Assembly: GCA_022710665.1 (NCBI GenBank)
Contig: JAKLGN010000031.1
Location: forward strand, 1-10,291
Source: Methanoregula sp.
Lineage (GTDB): Archaea > Halobacteriota > Methanomicrobia > Methanomicrobiales > Methanospirillaceae
DNA: 10,291 nucleotides
Direction: 5' to 3'
In this document: positions 848-6,994 of the stretch, piece after piece
Layout of the letters: each line of letters starts with the position of its first letter
How positions within the stretch are numbered: position 1 is the stretch's first letter
Program-made: the position numbers and the translations under genes
Notes under the pieces: model-generated
The model's database searches: none
What the model was told of the DNA's origin: nothing
The model's input: the letters and a program-made list of their open reading frames with translations, nothing else

Positions 848-955
848 GTGCTCTGGAGAAACGGGAAGGCATGGATCGGATCTCACAACAAGCAAATAAA
901 TTGCCGATATGAGGGACCACCGCACCTGGGCTCCTCGTGGGGCACAGTGGGGCAG
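848..955 (+). repeat. Structured intergenic element, copy 1 (108 nt)
   Basis: This element shares its first 18 bases (GTGCTCTGGAGAAACGGG) with the element at 3874-3979. Of its last 28 bases, 25 match that copy. The ends can pair: TGCTC near the 5' end with GGGCA near the 3' end, using one G-U pair. A 3' hairpin has arms GCTCC (930-934) and GGGGC (939-943) around TCGT; copy 2 has GCCCC/GGGGC around TCGC, so the stem is kept despite the change. The middle is unrelated in sequence but holds its own nested pairing, ATCG (874-877) with CGAT (905-908, or ATCGG with CCGAT one base shifted) outside GCAA (892-895)/TTGC (901-904). A six-T run at 962-967 could end a transcript. The element is not upstream of any plus-strand gene, so a riboswitch role is unlikely; a small RNA or a dispersed repeat fits better. 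Confidence 0.65.
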
Positions 956-1080
956 TTGCGTGTTTTTTGTATACCAGGGTTTTTGTTCGGGTCCTGCCGG
1001 CAGTCGTTCTTACCGGGCGGGAACAACCGCAGTTGAAGATCCTGATGGAGGATAAAGTTCAAACCCGCTCAACTTTGCGA
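956..1080. other. Non-coding stretch with minor inverted repeats
   Basis: No convincing gene is present. The stretch holds the T-run after copy 1, a palindrome CTGCCGGCAG near 994-1003, and a small hairpin with arms AAAGTT (1054-1059) and AACTTT (1071-1076). I could not assign a function to these. Confidence 0.35.
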
Positions 1081-1112
1081 TAAGAGAAGAAAAGATCCGG
1101 GTTGGACCGGAT
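1081..1112 (-). terminator. Hairpin-plus-T-rich terminator for the small gene at 1126-1341
   Basis: A perfect 6-bp stem pairs ATCCGG (1095-1100) with CCGGAT (1107-1112) around a 6-nt loop. On the minus strand it is followed by the T-rich tract CTTTTCTTCTCTTA. It lies 13 bases past the TGA of the minus-strand gene, the right place and orientation for its terminator. Confidence 0.5.
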
Positions 1113-1125
1113 TCCTCCCGTAAAA

Positions 1126-1341
1126 TCAGTCCTGTCCGGTTTTTACGGTTTCCCGGGAAAGCGTGGATACCGTTTCAGAGTATACCGTGGATAACGTTCC
1201 TGCGTACACCTTGGATAATGTTCCCGTATATGCCCTGGATAAGATCAGGGCAAGGACTTCCTTCTCTTCAAGAGTCGGCGGATACCGGGGATCGTTCATG
1301 GCGGTCTCGGCCTGCCGTATGACATCGCCTATTGTTGTCAC
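1126..1341 (-). CDS. Small protein (71 aa) with four tandem octapeptide repeats
   Basis: No family is recognised. Three signals support a real gene. The GTG start at 1341 has AAGGAG at 1352-1357, about 10 bases upstream. A TATA-like box (1390-1397) lies at a fitting distance further up. A terminator-like hairpin follows the stop. Residues 1-36 look like two amphipathic helices (TIGDVIRQAETAM, then TLEEKEVLALILSRA). Residues 37-68 are four imperfect 8-mers: AYTGTLSK, VYAGTLST, VYSETVST, LSRETVKT. The protein is small and probably soluble, with no Cys and no signal peptide. An overlapping plus-strand frame (1163-1426, GTG start) is also open through the repeats but lacks a ribosome-binding site. 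The gene stands alone between the two PAN genes, pointing the same way as the second. Confidence 0.55.
   Translation of the reverse strand: MTTIGDVIRQAETAMNDPRYPPTLEEKEVLALILSRAYTGTLSKVYAGTLSTVYSETVSTLSRETVKTGQD
1138..1233 (-). repeat. Four tandem 24-bp units inside the small gene
   Basis: On the plus strand the units are visible as TGGATA-initiated blocks 24 bases apart (near 1164, 1188, 1212 and 1236, the last degenerate). They encode the octapeptide repeats. The unit length is a multiple of three, so gain or loss of units keeps the frame. Confidence 0.7.
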
Positions 1342-1350
1342 GGTTTCAAT

Positions 1351-1397
1351 GCTCCTTTTTCCCGTGTATACCGCTGAAGATCAGCATGGGATATATT
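1351..1397 (-). promoter_or_regulatory. TATA-like box and ribosome-binding site of the 71-aa gene
   Basis: On the minus strand GGAATATATCC (TATATA core near 1390-1397) lies about 50 bases upstream of the GTG. Archaeal initiation about 25 bases downstream of the box would give a leader of roughly 28 nt that contains the AAGGAG site at 1352-1357. Confidence 0.4.
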
Positions 1398-1737
1398 CCT
1401 ACCATAGGTACAGTTCTGTCAGCTAACCTGCGGGATCAATGATAGAACCGGTAAGCTTTCACAAAGGATTGGTACAAGGAAACGTGCGGATACAATCCGG
1501 AATAAACATGGTGTTTTGTCTTAAAATCATGGGATGAAAATGAACAACCATCGATCGGAAAAAGTGCATCGTTTTTGATTACATTGTTGAATGCTCTTGA
1601 GCTGGCAGTTGCAGTTCAAACGCATGGCGGAATTTTCATTAACAGGGGCGATCCGATGACAACCCCCCGGGTGTGTCAGAATGGGGGTTTAAAAGGTTAT
1701 TTTTTAAAAGTCAGGGGCAGAAACAAAACACCTGCCC
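1398..1737. other. Intergenic stretch with one plus-strand hairpin and T-run
   Basis: No supported gene is present; an open plus frame from 1575 has no ribosome-binding site and runs into the second PAN on the opposite strand. The one clear structure is a 7-bp stem, AACCCCC (1661-1667) with GGGGGTT (1683-1689), followed by a T-run at 1700-1705. This resembles a terminator on the plus strand, although no plus-strand gene precedes it. A second A/T-rich stem (TTTAAAA with TTTTAAA) overlaps its 3' side. Confidence 0.4.
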
Positions 1738-1797
1738 AAAAAAAGGGAGGGGATGAGAATTCTTTGACCCGCAAGGTTGTTTTTACCTTCCGGGTCA
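1738..1797 (-). terminator. Strong terminator of the complete PAN gene
   Basis: TGACCCG (1765-1771) pairs with CGGGTCA (1791-1797). An inner AAGGT/ACCTT stem (1773-1777 with 1785-1789) closes a 7-nt loop, and one C-C mismatch separates the two stems. The stem contains the gene's own TGA stop codon. On the minus strand a seven-T run (1738-1744) follows about 20 bases later. This is a good termination signal overlapping the end of the reading frame. Confidence 0.6.
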
Positions 1798-3105
1798 TGC
1801 AAACATCGCCCCTTCGACATCCACCGGGCCCCGGTTAAAGTCAAGATTGACCTTTGCGATGGCCGCGAGGAAGTCTTCCTGCGTAATCGAAGGCCGTTCT
1901 TTTCTGATGGCAAACATACCGGCCTCCATGCAGATCGCCCGGAGGTCGGCACCGTTCTTGCCCTCAGTCATCTTCGCAACGGCAGAAAGATCCACGGTTT
2001 CCTCCATGTTCAGTGACCGGGAGTGCACGTTCAGGATTGAGAACCGTCCTGCTTCATTCGGGAGCGGGATCTCGATGATGCGGTCGAAACGGCCGGGACG
2101 GAGCAGGGCACGATCAAGGATATCGATACGATTTGTCGCGCCGATGATCTTGACATCCCCGCGGTTCTCAAACCCATCCATACCGGCGAGAAGCTGCATA
2201 AGGGTGCGCTGGACTTCCCGGTCACCGGACGTGTTTGCCTCGGTGCGGGACGCACCCACGGCATCGATCTCATCGATGAAGATGATGGTCGGGGCTTTCT
2301 TCTTTGCCAGGTCGAAGAGTTCCCGCACGAGCCGGGCTCCCTCGCCGATATATTTCTGGACCAGCTCCGATCCCACGACCCTCATGAAATGGGCATTGGT
2401 CTCATGGGCTACCGCTTTTGCAAGCAGGGTCTTTCCGGTGCCCGGGGGGCCGTGGAGCAGCACACCCTTCGGAGGATCTATACCAATCTTCAGGAAGAGT
2501 TCCGGGCGTTTCAGGGGAAGTTCGACAGCCTCCCGGATCTCGTTGATCTGTGGTTTGAGGCCCCCGATATCCGCGTAGGTCTCCTGCGGGGAGTCCGTAA
2601 GCTCCATACCGTAGATCTGTGCATCGAACGATGCGGGGAGAAGCTCAACTATTGCGAGCGACTGCTGGTTGAGCGTGCAGCGGACCCCTGGCTTGAGGTC
2701 ATCGGCATTGACCGACGGCGAACTCCGTACAAGGAATCGCGGGCCGGCACTGCTGCGCACAATCACCCGCGAGGGGTCAACGATATCGGTCACGGTCCCG
2801 ATGATCAGCGGAGGGCTCCTGAGCTGCTCGCTCTCGCTCTTGAGCTTGCGGACTTCCCGCTCGTACCGGATCTTCTGGGTTTCGATATACCGCTTATCTG
2901 CCTCGATCTGCCGGATCTGCTCCCGGAGCTCAAGATTCCGTGATTCAAGACTGCCGACCCGCTCTATCATCTGGGCTTCCAGCTCGTGCTTGTCACTTTC
3001 GATCTGGACAATCTGATCGCGGAGCTGCTCTGACAGGGTGCGGTACCGCCTGTACAGCTCTTCGGGGGTCTGAGGATCCGGTGACTGGTGCAGGGTATCG
3101 GCCAT
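1795..3105 (-). CDS. pan: Proteasome-activating nucleotidase (PAN), complete, 436 aa
   Basis: This is the hexameric AAA+ ATPase that unfolds proteins and feeds them to the 20S proteasome. Domains in order are: N-terminal coiled coil, about 18-95, rich in Glu/Lys/Arg; OB-fold, about 97-160, opening with the paired prolines P98-P99, one of which is the cis-proline switch in characterised PANs; AAA module, about 175-425. Visible motifs are Walker A GPPGTGKT (219-226), pore loop K-Y-I-G (251-254), Walker B IIFIDE (274-279), sensor-1 Asn in ATNR (N325), and the second region of homology with arginine fingers R336 and R339. Its length is normal for PAN. The tail ends M-F-A, so the central Tyr of the HbYX docking motif is Phe. 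The ATG at 3105 has no strong Shine-Dalgarno but sits a few bases after the predicted transcription start. The gene diverges from MBF1 and is a paralogue of the partial ATPase at the window start. Confidence 0.95.
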
Positions 3106-3134
3106 CTCGTGTCTCAGGTACGTATATGGGAAAA

Positions 3135-3146
3135 CTATATATAAAG
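3135..3146 (-). promoter_or_regulatory. TATA box of the complete PAN gene
   Basis: The minus-strand sequence CTTTATATATAG is a near-ideal archaeal TATA box. Initiation about 25 bases downstream falls near 3115, giving a leader of about 10 nt before the ATG at 3105. That agrees with the lack of a good Shine-Dalgarno. Confidence 0.65.
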
Positions 3147-3197
3147 TGTTTGTGAATTGACAAAGCCGCGGGTACGGCCGGCTTCTTTTGAATTCAG

Positions 3198-3209
3198 TGG
3201 GAATTTATA
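3198..3209 (+). promoter_or_regulatory. BRE/TATA promoter of MBF1, probably leaderless
   Basis: A purine-rich BRE-like stretch (GTGGGAA) runs directly into TTTATA (3204-3209). Initiation about 25 bases downstream lands at or just before the ATG at 3238, and no Shine-Dalgarno precedes that ATG. The transcript is therefore probably leaderless or nearly so. Both promoters of this divergent pair fit within 132 bp. Confidence 0.6.
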
Positions 3210-3237
3210 CTCGCACGGGCTACTTCTTTGTGAGATT

Positions 3238-3753
3238 ATGCAGTGCGAAATGTGCGGTGAGACAATACGGGGCGCCCCGAAACTGGTCCGTGTGGAGGGG
3301 GCTGAACTTTCGGTCTGCAGCAAATGCGGGAAGTTTGGCACCGAGGTACAACAGGTACGCCGCACGGACATCGGGGTTTCTCCAAGGGGAGCTGGAGGCC
3401 GGCCCGCTCCGAAACCTGCCGGAGGGGCAGCTACGGTCCGCTACAAACGGGACATGTTCGATTATATGGAAGGGGATGTTGTTGACGATTACGCGATTCG
3501 GATCCGTCAGGCTCGCGAGGCAAAGGGGCTTTCCCAGAAAGACCTTGCCATGCAGCTGAAGGAGAAGGAGCACCTCATCCGCAAGATCGAGAACAGCGAC
3601 CTGATTCCCGAGGAGAATGTACGGAAGAAACTCGAGAAAGTCCTGGAAATCCGGCTGATTGATACCCCGTCAACAGATGAAGAAAAGAAGGTTATGGGAA
3701 AACTCACCCCGACACTTGGGGATCTCACGATCATCCGCAAGGCAAAAAAGTGA
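3238..3753 (+). CDS. mbf1: Archaeal multiprotein bridging factor 1 (MBF1), 171 aa
   Basis: This is a putative transcription or translation-associated factor conserved in archaea and eukaryotes. An N-terminal zinc ribbon uses C3-x2-C6 and C27-x2-C30. A Gly/Pro/Ala-rich flexible linker follows (about 48-68), then a Cro/C1-type helix-turn-helix (about 84-140) with IRQAREAKGLSQKDLA and the KIENSDLIPEENVRKKLEK block typical of MBF1. The C-terminal tail is basic. The start is placed at ATG 3238 because the zinc ribbon begins there and the promoter lies just upstream; the in-frame codon at 3157 would add 27 residues encoded across that promoter. The length is normal for archaeal MBF1. It is divergent from PAN, an arrangement compatible with shared regulation. 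Ribosome association is known for some archaeal MBF1 proteins but cannot be judged from this sequence. Confidence 0.92.
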   Translation: MQCEMCGETIRGAPKLVRVEGAELSVCSKCGKFGTEVQQVRRTDIGVSPRGAGGRPAPKPAGGAATVRYKRDMFDYMEGDVVDDYAIRIRQAREAKGLSQKDLAMQLKEKEHLIRKIENSDLIPEENVRKKLEKVLEIRLIDTPSTDEEKKVMGKLTPTLGDLTIIRKAKK

Positions 3754-3759
3754 TTGTTC

Positions 3760-3767
3760 TTTTTTTT
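3760..3767 (+). terminator. U-tract terminator of MBF1
   Basis: Eight consecutive T bases lie seven bases after the MBF1 TGA, without a clear stem. This is a typical archaeal intrinsic terminator. Confidence 0.6.
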
Positions 3768-3873
3768 ATCGTGGAATTCAGTTTTTCATAAACAGGATAG
3801 CGCCTCCTGCGCCAGCTCTTCTCCCGATAAAGGACTGGTTGCGCAAGGACGGGGGAATAAATCACACGAAAAT

Positions 3874-3979
3874 GTGCTCTGGAGAAACGGGCATGAGCAT
3901 AGTGAGTTCATACCGGAACCATGAAACTCGCAGTTCCGGCTCCCCGTTTCAGGGCCCCTCGCGGGGCACAGTGGAGCAG
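3874..3979 (+). repeat. Structured intergenic element, copy 2 (106 nt)
   Basis: The fold is clearest in this copy. The closing stem pairs TGCTC (3875-3879) with GAGCA (3974-3978 region). The second stem pairs GAAACGGG (3884-3891) with CCCGTTTC (3943-3950). An inner stem pairs CCGGAAC (3913-3919) with GTTCCGG (3933-3939). A 3' hairpin, GCCCC/GGGGC around TCGC, sits at 3954-3967. Alternative pairing of GAGTTCAT (3904-3911) with ATGAAACTC (3921-3929) is possible. Three nested stems of this length in 106 bases indicate selection for RNA or single-stranded DNA structure. The element follows MBF1 after its terminator and precedes no plus-strand gene for 4 kb. A weak TATA-like GAATAAAT lies about 20 bases upstream. 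Confidence 0.68.
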
Positions 3980-4047
3980 ATTACCGGATTCTTGAATGAG
4001 TACGGTAATTAGGGCCGCTGCGGGAGCGCCCCGTCAGGGGCGGCGGC
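3980..4047 (+). other. Two consecutive hairpins directly after structured element copy 2
   Basis: The first is a 7-bp stem, ATTACCG (3980-3986) with CGGTAAT (4003-4009). The second is a long GC-rich stem: CGCCCC (4027-4032) with GGGGCG (4037-4042) around GTCA, extended by GCCGC (4014-4018) with GCGGC (4043-4047) across an 8-nt bulge. They follow copy 2 with no gap, so they may be part of the same RNA or act as its 3' end. Copy 1 has no equivalent. Confidence 0.5.
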
Positions 4048-4240
4048 GTTTATCGCAAATGATTGAGAACGTGAAAAATCTAAAAAAAATCACCTTTGTT
4101 CAATGCAATTTTCATAGGAAATCATCGGACAGACGCTCCCTTTGGCTTTTGCTCACGCTTGAGCCCCCGCATTACAATACTCACTCATAAGGTTTTTTAC
4201 GATTTCCCCGTTGAACAGAGGACAGTCCTGTCGCAATGCG
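4048..4240. other. A/T-rich intergenic stretch, no gene seen
   Basis: The stretch contains an A-rich stem (GTGA with TCAC near 4071-4092) and a short GCTCA/TGAGC hairpin near 4151-4164. No reading frame here has a ribosome-binding site and protein-like composition. Confidence 0.3.
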
Positions 4241-4306
4241 CCCTGAGCCCCGACGGGGGCAGGGATGGCTAAAAGGGGGGACTAGAGCGGGGACGGGAAG
4301 CTGGGG
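4241..4306. other. GC-rich hairpin and G-run cluster downstream of the DUF47 gene
   Basis: CCCT plus GCCCC (4241-4244, 4247-4251) pair with GGGGC plus AGGG (4256-4264) around GACG. To the right are four plus-strand G-runs: 4275-4280, 4289-4292, 4295-4297 and 4303-4306. Their spacing (8, 2 and 5 bases) is marginal for a G-quadruplex. The region lies beyond the 3' end of the phosphate operon, where the transcript would read C-rich with the hairpin after it. It may help end that transcript, but no T-run follows directly. Confidence 0.4.
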
Positions 4307-4344
4307 ACTGGATTGGAACTTTACCCTTACGCATCACCATGTAT

Positions 4345-4998
4345 CTATGCCAGGTCGATCACGGCGTTGTGCAGGATGTCAAGCGTGTTCCGCATAGCCC
4401 TGCCTGCATCGCGCAGGTGATGGTAGATCTCGCGGGTTCTGATTGCCTGCATAGCGTCGCTTGTTTTCAGGAGCACCGCCATACCAAGGATATACCGGTC
4501 CTCCAGTGCGTTATAGGCGTCCCGGGCATGGCGGATCTCGTCCTCGGTCCGGGCTTTGTCCTCATCAAGGGCATGGACCCCCCGGGCAATGCACTCGGTC
4601 CCGGAGATGAGGAATCCGGTCATGGCATGGATATACGGATCCGGCGGGACACCAAACGCGTGCATCTCCTTTGCGGTCTCTTTGGCAAAATTCAGGATAT
4701 AGTCCATCTGGCGCGAGATGCTGTAGATATCCTGGCGGTCAAATGGCGTTGAGAAGGAGTTGATGAGCTTCTCTTCCATGGCGTGGCGCATCTGGTCCAC
4801 CTCAATCTCGATCTCTTCCAGGTGCACGGGATTGGTCAGGGGCAGAACTTCCAGCCAGGATGCAAACGATCTGACTCCCGCAACGGTCCTATCCGCCTGA
4901 GCTTCGAGCATGGTATGGAAGTCATGTTCCCGGGGAAAGAGCGATGCGAAAATGCCACGGCCCTCTCCTGCTTTTTTTCTGCTGGTTTTCCATTCCAC
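4345..4998 (-). CDS. DUF47 / PhoU-like phosphate transport regulator, 217 aa
   Basis: DUF47 proteins are PhoU-like helical bundles normally encoded beside PiT permeases and thought to control them. The sequence is almost all helix with regularly spaced acidic residues. Features include the opening FASLFPREHDFHTMLEAQAD, the metal-binding-like helix EEIEIEVDQMRHAMEEKLINSFSTPFDRQDIYSISRQMDYILNFAKE (quoted as landmarks of two adjoining helices), and a closing helix LRDAGRAMRNTLDILHNAVIDLA. The E-x3-D...F-x-TPFDRxDIxxL pattern is characteristic of the family. The length of about 215 aa is typical. The start is the GTG at 4998, just after the permease stop. The likely Shine-Dalgarno (GGGAGTG) lies within the end of the permease gene, so translation is probably coupled. 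Confidence 0.9.
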   Translation of the reverse strand: MEWKTSRKKAGEGRGIFASLFPREHDFHTMLEAQADRTVAGVRSFASWLEVLPLTNPVHLEEIEIEVDQMRHAMEEKLINSFSTPFDRQDIYSISRQMDYILNFAKETAKEMHAFGVPPDPYIHAMTGFLISGTECIARGVHALDEDKARTEDEIRHARDAYNALEDRYILGMAVLLKTSDAMQAIRTREIYHHLRDAGRAMRNTLDILHNAVIDLA

Positions 4999-6563: not shown

Positions 6564-6732
6564 TCAATAAAAAAAATCCAGAACTCCCATGGGCTGTGCT
6601 CCCGCTTCCATACTCTCTGCCGGCTGGGCTGATGACGAATTACCAGTTACCTCTCGCAGATCATCCCCGTGCGCCCCATCTCCTGATCGGTAAACCGGGG
6701 CTGAAGAGGTATCATCGCATGGCAACAATTGA

Positions 6733-6792
6733 GCTCTGGAGAAATCACCAGACAGACACTTCCGAAAGTGTCAGTCCGATCATTGAGAGCAG
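6733..6792 (+). repeat. Structured intergenic element, copy 3 (short, 60 nt)
   Basis: It begins with GCTCTGGAGAAA, the same 12 bases as copies 1 and 2, and ends GAGCAG like copy 2. GCTCT (6733-6737) pairs with AGAGC (6786-6790). The centre is a single 7-bp hairpin, GACACTT with AAGTGTC (6755-6761 with 6766-6772 approximately). It lacks the GC-rich 3' hairpin of the other two. The conserved 5' motif, the closing stem and a variable hairpin core suggest a shorter family member or a decayed copy. Confidence 0.45.
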
Positions 6793-6922
6793 AGCAGAAG
6801 AGAAGGGCCGAAAAAAATTAAAAAATGGGGGGGTACCCCGGGCCCTGACTTTGGAGGGGAGAGGTAACGACCTGGTGTGGTTGTTTCTCGTTGCTTTTTG
6901 TTGTTCTCAGGTGTTCAGTGTG

Positions 6923-6967
6923 CTATACTGCCAATATCAGCACGGGAATGTGCTGATATTTGTATAG
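6923..6967. other. Long near-perfect inverted repeat
   Basis: An 11-bp perfect stem, AATATCAGCAC (6933-6943) with GTGCTGATATT (6950-6960), encloses a 6-nt loop. It is extended by CTATAC (6923-6928) with GTATAG (6962-6967) across a small internal loop. A/T-rich TATA-like sequence (GTATAGTATATTTTA) overlaps and follows its right arm. It could be a large operator beside a plus-strand promoter, or a transcribed hairpin. No gene abuts it on either side. Confidence 0.6.
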
Positions 6968-6994
6968 TATATTTTACATTTTGTTTCAAATACT

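What the first reader, a model, noticed from the sequence alone, without database searches (positions are those of the whole stretch)
848..3979. Dispersed family of structured elements with fixed ends and variable middle
Elements at 848-955 and 3874-3979 share 18 identical bases at the 5' end and 25 of 28 at the 3' end. They are nearly the same length (108 and 106 nt), yet their middles are unrelated in sequence while both can fold. Both can form a closing stem and the same GC-rich 3' hairpin, with a pairing-preserving base change (C to T opposite G). Both are in the same orientation in gene-free sequence and not ahead of plus-strand genes. Constant ends with a swapped core could mean a small RNA with a changing guide or recognition segment, or a non-autonomous mobile element. 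I know of no described RNA or MITE class that matches.
Basis: partly seen in the sequence, partly recalled or inferred. Interest (0 to 1): 0.72.

Follow-up and report, generated by a model that had tools for sequence, protein, structure and literature searches.

The report
Archaeal mini-transposons with structured ends
The two repeats are worn remnants of small jumping DNA elements, too short to carry a transposase gene, of a family spread in methane-producing archaea; the unusual feature is a conserved, hairpin-rich segment fixed beside one end, whose role is unknown.

Summary
The repeats are real, but they are not short RNAs with a swapped core. They are the left ends of longer non-autonomous transposons (MITEs). 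The "18 identical 5' bases" are mostly a terminal inverted repeat, (G/T)GCTCTGKAGAAA, found at 78 places in the window's genome against 7 for the reversed control. Of 64 fetched sequences bounded by this repeat and its inverse, 19 have exact 8-bp flanking duplications; other lengths give 0-2. IS5-family insertion sequences of about 1 kb in related genomes have the same ends and 8-bp duplications, and the window's genome holds transposase fragments beside such ends. In 9 of 9 loci where both flanking genes of copy 2 were found they lie 21-84 bp apart; here 591 bp. The "unrelated middles" are diverged homologues. Copy 1 spans about 849-988, copy 2 about 3875-4280; both lack a recognisable right end. 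Unusual is a ~230-nt hairpin-rich module beside the end repeat: a model of its first part matches 35 of 39 genomes of the genus, with 106 or more copies in two. Its stems show a modest plus-strand excess of G-U-preserving changes, a hint but no proof of an RNA role.

The parts
849..861 (+). copy 1: left terminal inverted repeat TGCTCTGGAGAAA
   Evidence: same kind of end on IS5-family elements
862..955 (+). copy 1: structured module, first part (hairpins H1 and H2, partly decayed)
   Evidence: BLAST similarity to other copies; model score 63.9 bits, but this copy was in the training set
849..988 (+). copy 1: whole detectable remnant; right part lost or decayed
   Evidence: similarity to other copies covers 844-988; 1000-1800 gives no hit at E 1e-3 in the loci held
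3875..3887 (+). copy 2: left terminal inverted repeat TGCTCTGGAGAAA
3888..3979 (+). copy 2: structured module, first part (H1, H2)
   Evidence: BLAST 86% to C157, E 5.0e-40; model score 81.4 bits, training copy
3980..4126 (+). copy 2: rest of the ~230-nt module, with GC-rich hairpin H4 near 4012-4047
   Evidence: alignment A1 and BLAST 81-89% identity to other copies
4118..4280 (+). copy 2: right-half module shared with other elements; its terminal repeat is not recognisable
   Evidence: BLAST 72-89% to L071, L064, L065, L031 and others
3754..4344 (.). 591-bp gap between convergent genes that is 21-84 bp in 9 of 9 loci where both genes were found: the insertion region
6732..6744 (+). third sequence like the terminal repeat (AGCTCTGGAGAAA); no module match after it; membership uncertain

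Best explanation
The two elements are decayed copies of a high-copy MITE family in an archaeal genus that includes genomes labelled Methanoregula, and in close kin. SHOWN: their 5' end is a terminal inverted repeat of at least 13 bp; complete family members carry it at both ends, are about 90-700 bp long (too short for the roughly 315-codon transposase of the IS plus its ends), and are flanked by 8-bp, mostly A/T-rich duplications. IS5-family insertion sequences of about 1 kb in the same genus have the same ends and the same 8-bp duplications, and the window's genome holds pieces of that transposase beside such ends. INFERRED: the IS5-type transposase acts in trans on DNA between two such ends and inserts it at A/T-rich sites, more often behind genes than between divergent ones. 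Members share a conserved ~230-nt multi-hairpin module next to the repeat while the other half varies, so the family spreads by transposition and changes by divergence, internal deletion and recombination between elements. Both window copies have lost a recognisable right end and are probably immobile.
For: Terminal repeat at 78 places (44+34, up to 1 mismatch) in the own genome against 7 for the reversed pattern; an exact form in 33 of 39 genus genomes. 64 distinct TIR-bounded sequences in fetched loci (IS copies included): exact duplication at 8 bp in 19 of 64, at 4-7 and 9-12 bp in 0-2 each; at least 7 of 8 in 30 of 64 against mean 1.5, maximum 6, in 2000 re-pairings. Transposase: PF01609 E 5.9e-22, NCBIfam NF033579 IS5 209 bits with cut-off 140; hits in 26 of 39 genus genomes. 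Exact 8-bp duplications around 7 IS copies among 30 transposase loci fetched (L173, L178, L179, L184, L190, L198, L199, some with broken frames). Own-genome transposase pieces at C16 (cut by the contig end) and C37 beside such repeats; the C37 piece lies in a 244-bp sequence with both ends but without a duplication. Repeat directly upstream of the module in 60 of 89 model hits at up to 2 mismatches against 0.4% at random places. Syntenic sites without the insertion, 9 of 9.
Against: Neither window copy has a recognisable right repeat or target duplication, so each is assigned by homology to complete members. 34 of the 64 TIR-bounded sequences do not reach 7 of 8 in the duplication (decay or wrong pairing; four of them are pairs formed with a near-match inside IS copies). 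The 14 IS copies checked carry no module, so the module is not simply a shortened IS. 29 of 89 module hits have no repeat at up to 2 mismatches upstream. 13 of 39 genus genomes have no transposase hit and 4 of 39 no module hit. The 121 bp left of copy 2 (3754-3874) are also absent from relatives, so the insertion boundary is not exact. Mobilisation in trans is inferred, not shown.
Confidence: 0.93

Rival explanations
1. The conserved module next to the terminal repeat is a functional structured RNA (plus strand) carried by the MITE, for example a transposon-borne ncRNA or an RNA element in the 3' region of upstream transcripts.
For: Hairpins H1, H2, H4 form in 88.6% of cells across 38 copies (partners slid by 1-3 columns: 37-51%), with 23 cells changed on both sides (shuffled mean 10.4), e.g. 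C-G to U-A in 13 sequences. In stems, C>T giving G-U 42 against G>A giving A-C 21 events, unpaired columns 74 against 79 (Fisher p 0.016). Model-fetched copies without training duplicates: 35 against 13, unpaired 92 against 82, p 0.014. Upstream gene on the same strand in 46 of 70 copies (p 0.012).
Against: RNAalifold finds almost no consensus structure (-4.3 kcal/mol). The number of pairs with both-side changes (7 of 27) is reached by 73 of 500 shuffles, further pair types by 167 of 500; the C-G to U-A change may be one inherited event. Model-fetched copies were chosen by a structure-aware score and may be biased; training set A2 alone gives 20 against 13 for G-C pairs, p 0.23. Copy 1 folds no better than shuffles. 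No Rfam match. No expression data.
Confidence: 0.25
2. The hairpin-rich module acts as DNA (transposase or host-factor binding, cruciform or subterminal enhancer) and is conserved because it raises the element's own mobility.
For: It sits at a fixed distance beside the terminal repeat, sometimes at both ends in inverted orientation (L164; ends of L147-L150), and no match to it was found in 14 IS copies.
Against: IS copies with exact duplications moved without it; plain double-stranded DNA binding does not predict the strand asymmetry in stems.
Confidence: 0.3
3. A small RNA family with constant ends and a swapped guide segment.
For: Two copies taken alone share only their ends.
Against: The middles are homologous through an intermediate copy; the 5' constant part is a transposon end found on different cores; family similarity continues beyond the proposed 3' end.
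Confidence: 0.02

Closest known systems
MITEs derived from IS elements (general kind; definition recalled)
   Same: Short, too short for a transposase gene, terminal inverted repeats shared with a full IS, target duplications of one length, high copy number
   Different: Carry a conserved multi-hairpin module next to the terminal repeat that was not found in the IS copies, joined to variable other halves
IS5-family insertion sequences (PF01609; NCBIfam NF033579). An ISH1-like subgroup with 8-bp duplications is recalled and was not tested
   Same: The about 1-kb partners have this transposase, these ends and 8-bp duplications
   Different: The window elements carry no transposase; the module is absent from the 14 IS copies examined
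MITEs of Sulfolobus islandicus (PMC3718332, seen only as a search listing with the start of its abstract)
   Same: MITEs reported in an archaeon
   Different: Other lineage; no sequence relation was tested
Rfam RNA families
   Same: Conserved hairpins with some compensatory change
   Different: No family reaches its gathering score; best sub-threshold E 0.24

Membership tests
MITE of an IS element | terminal inverted repeats at both ends | tested here: met
   met for the family: 64 distinct TIR-bounded sequences among fetched loci, IS copies included. Not met for the two window copies, which show the left end only
MITE of an IS element | target-site duplication of constant length | tested here: met
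   8 bp, exact in 19 of 64, 0-2 for other lengths. Cannot be seen for the window copies
MITE of an IS element | ends match a full-length IS in the same or related genomes | tested here: met
MITE of an IS element | short, no transposase gene | tested here: inconclusive
   91-701 bp apart from IS-sized ones and one of 1024 bp, L119; longest open stretch 144 codons in the elements read; not compared with protein families one by one, and the 244-bp L084 keeps a transposase piece
MITE of an IS element | mobilised in trans by the IS transposase | not testable with these tools
   needs an experiment
IS5-family transposase (the partner) | DDE transposase of the IS5 family | tested here: met
   PF01609 E 5.9e-22; NF033579 209.1 bits, cut-off 140; 2 of the 120 homologues listed are named IS5 family transposase [Methanoregula sp.], others transposase or hypothetical protein or unnamed
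IS6/IS240-like element (considered because of the look of the ends) | PF13610 transposase inside elements with this repeat | tested here: not met
   4 of 39 genomes have a match at E<=0.001, 3 over the cut-off; in none of the five loci does a matching pair of ends enclose the gene
Rfam RNA family | match at gathering score | tested here: not met
   0 in the window, 0 in eight element loci
structured RNA | covariation in stems above phylogenetic expectation | tested here: inconclusive
structured RNA | expression as a discrete transcript | not testable with these tools
   no RNA-seq here

The most novel reading that the evidence does not exclude
An archaeal MITE family carries a conserved, selected structured RNA next to its end repeat, with more than a hundred copies in some genomes, that works on the plus strand (in the 3' regions of host transcripts or as a free RNA) and has been kept across the genus by its own function rather than by transposition alone.
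Probability: 0.2. Interest if true: 0.72.

Novelty: new variant of a known kind. Interest (0 to 1): 0.42.

Why it matters
It explains a striking repeat pattern in methanogens as the work of an IS5-type transposase, gives the family's ends, target duplication and partner IS, and singles out a conserved hairpin-rich module as the one feature that does not follow from ordinary MITE biology. If the module is a functional RNA, these genomes carry tens to more than a hundred copies of an undescribed RNA spread by transposition, which RNA-seq could test directly.

Tried and rejected
Small RNA with a changing guide: rejected, because the middles align through a third copy and the end is a transposon end. 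Known RNA family: no match; no tRNA or tmRNA in the window. IS6/IS240-like partner: searched, no matching ends around the gene. Two larger TIR-bounded candidates in L119 (1024 bp) and L124 (871 bp): no transposase recognised by eye in the listed frames; not searched against families. RNAalifold on the module: almost no consensus structure. The pair-count tool gave values above all shuffles on three measures and not on two. Gene context of 70 copies: convergent 24, tandem 38, divergent 8. Module search in the 44 named loci around the DUF47 gene (386,509 bases): none.

Rows dropped before counts: 2 of 91 model hits cut off by locus ends, one sequence over 125 nt (L357), the two window copies and identical rows (84 left), while one row (L358) was the same locus as training row L100, removed in the rerun (83 rows), copy 1 left out of helix H4 where it is truncated, and unpaired columns with fewer than 30 letters, loci collapsed by identical sequence, only the nearest right end taken, and pairs with under 20 bases of flank skipped, 13 copies inside open frames of 110 codons or more, repeats of one locus, and copies without both neighbours. 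Copies fetched were picked from the best-scoring listed hits, so they lean towards the consensus. Counts per genome are lower bounds, since only part of the first-look candidates was scored.
Full report
OBSERVATION. The two repeats exist as described at their ends: 18 of 18 bases at 848-865 and 3874-3891, and 25 of 28 at 928-955 and 3952-3979. They lie between the 3' ends of convergent genes: a DUF5804 protein (201-713, +) and a proteasomal-type AAA ATPase (1795-3105, -) around copy 1; a helix-turn-helix protein (3241-3753, +) and a DUF47 protein (4345-4998, -) around copy 2. In the window's own genome (1.39 Mb in 242 contigs, 64% complete) copy 1 has 12 and copy 2 has 28 BLAST matches at E<=1e-5, self included (29 and 45 at E<=10).

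THE MIDDLES. Directly compared, the middles are 26 of 59 identical and no better than shuffles (9.8% score as high). The copy in L002 aligns with both, z 6.2 and 7.4, 0 of 2000 shuffles each. They are diverged homologues, not a swapped core. Family similarity continues to 988 for copy 1 and to 4280 for copy 2.

THE ENDS ARE TRANSPOSON ENDS. The 5' block is the repeat (G/T)GCTCTGKAGAAA. Intergenic elements with different cores start with it, and complete ones end with its inverse. In the own genome the pattern with up to one mismatch occurs 78 times against 7 for the reversed control; an exact form occurs in 33 of 39 genomes of the genus. I collected 64 distinct TIR-bounded sequences from the fetched loci (IS copies included). 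Flanking duplications are exact at 8 bp in 19 of 64; at 4-7 and 9-12 bp in 0-2. At least 7 of 8 match in 30 of 64, against a mean of 1.5 and a maximum of 6 in 2000 random re-pairings. The loci were fetched because they hit the element, the repeat or the transposase, so they are not a random sample. Elements with the module and exact 8-bp duplications include L037 of the own genome (412 bp, GAAAAAGC), L123, L147, L150, L151, L156 (module in L147), L306 and L372.

THE PARTNER. A 1007-bp element in L130 has these ends around a 324-codon frame that matches PF01609 (E 5.9e-22) and the NCBIfam IS5 model NF033579 (209 bits, cut-off 140). Relatives occur in 26 of 39 genus genomes. The protein database gave 982 homologues; of the 120 listed, two are named 'IS5 family transposase [Methanoregula sp.]'. 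Among 30 transposase loci fetched, seven show the matching ends with exact 8-bp duplications: L173, L178, L179, L184, L190, L198, L199; some have broken frames. L130/L172 itself has the ends but no duplication (1 of 8). The own genome has transposase pieces at C16 (cut by the contig end) and C37 next to such ends; the C37 piece lies in a 244-bp sequence with both ends and no duplication (2 of 8).

EMPTY SITE. Of 44 loci found by the DUF47 protein, nine hold both flanking genes (L202-L209, L211; labelled Methanoregula sp. or Methanomicrobiales archaeon). In all nine the gap is 21-84 bp by tblastn boundaries (in L211 the alignment ends early, so its 67 bp is an upper bound); in the window it is 591 bp. 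The exact insertion point cannot be fixed because 121 bp left of copy 2 are also absent from relatives and the right end has decayed. For copy 1 the corresponding gap is 1081 bp here against about 196-464 bp (upper bounds) in the four relatives read.

THE MODULE. Next to the repeat lies a conserved segment of about 230 nt with hairpins H1 (TGAAC/GTTCA), H2 (CCCCGCC/GGCGGGG enclosing GCCCC/GGGGC) and H4 (CCGCC/GGCGG). In a draw of 150 genomes of the order, 15 match: 11 of the 12 same-genus genomes listed (115 genomes without a match are not listed), two other genera of the family (22 and 4 copies), and two marginal hits in other families at E 7e-4 and 9e-4. Of ten named genomes, five match (those of L202, L205, L207, L208, L209); these are five of the seven labelled Methanoregula, and the three with other labels have none. 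Hits in the genome of L205 (Methanoregula sp. fen_80) have the same contig numbers and coordinates as those of same-genus genome G022, which ties the window's genus to that name. A 412-bp element query gave 35 of 36 genomes in the genus and 0 of 24 outside. The repeat stands directly upstream of the module in 60 of 89 hits at up to two mismatches, against 0.4% at random places. The module was not found in 14 IS copies checked. One element carries it at both ends (L164), four more have module-like ends (L147-L150), and L376 holds three copies.

RNA OR DNA? For: 88.6% of stem cells pair, against 37-51% when partners are slid, and 23 cells carry changes on both sides (shuffled mean 10.4). In stems, C>T changes that keep G-U number 42 against 21 G>A changes that break the pair, while unpaired columns show 74 and 79 (Fisher p 0.016). 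In model-fetched copies the numbers are 35 and 13 against 92 and 82 (83 rows, p 0.014). The upstream gene is on the same strand in 46 of 70 copies (p 0.012). Against: pairs with both-side changes are not above shuffles (73 of 500 reach it) nor are further pair types (167 of 500); RNAalifold gives -4.3 kcal/mol; model-fetched copies were chosen by a structure-aware score; training set A2 alone gives 20 against 13 (p 0.23), and both sets together 54 against 28 (p 0.029); copy 1 folds no better than shuffles. I regard an RNA role as open.

LITERATURE. Five searches listed no paper that by title and start of abstract describes this family; the only text opened was passages of PMC2246112, in which 'Methanoregula' does not occur. 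Most subscription journals and ISfinder are not held, so an existing description cannot be excluded.

VERDICT. An IS5-linked MITE family with a conserved structured module: a known kind with an unusual component. The two window copies are decayed members.

Noticed in passing
window 6732-6795: AGCTCTGGAGAAA, like the terminal repeat, followed by a short hairpin and a GAGCAGAGCA end; no module match after it and no convincing duplication. Possibly a very short derivative or chance.
   Followed up: partly
window about 6920-6972: Long near-perfect hairpin around AATATCAGCACGGGAATGTGCTGATATT within A/T-rich sequence without an evident gene (read by eye).
   Followed up: no
window 1126-1341 (-): 71-codon frame with a degenerate internal repeat (about VYxxTLS) and no Pfam match, in the stretch behind copy 1.
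   Followed up: no
L376 67-573: Three module copies in one locus, two of them preceded by TTTTCATGGGAAA instead of the terminal repeat: module junctions may be a recombination point.
   Followed up: partly
L147-L150, L164: Elements of 537-701 bp that begin and end with module-like sequence in inverted orientation.
   Followed up: partly
L030, L031, L035, L037, L039: Right halves fall into a few types, one of them seen in both orientations (by eye), which suggests nested insertion or recombination among elements.
   Followed up: partly
G029 and G015 genomes: G029 has 21 transposase matches, many nearly intact, and 29 module hits; G015 has 18 transposase matches, mostly pieces, and 4 module hits: the two do not simply rise together.
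   Followed up: no
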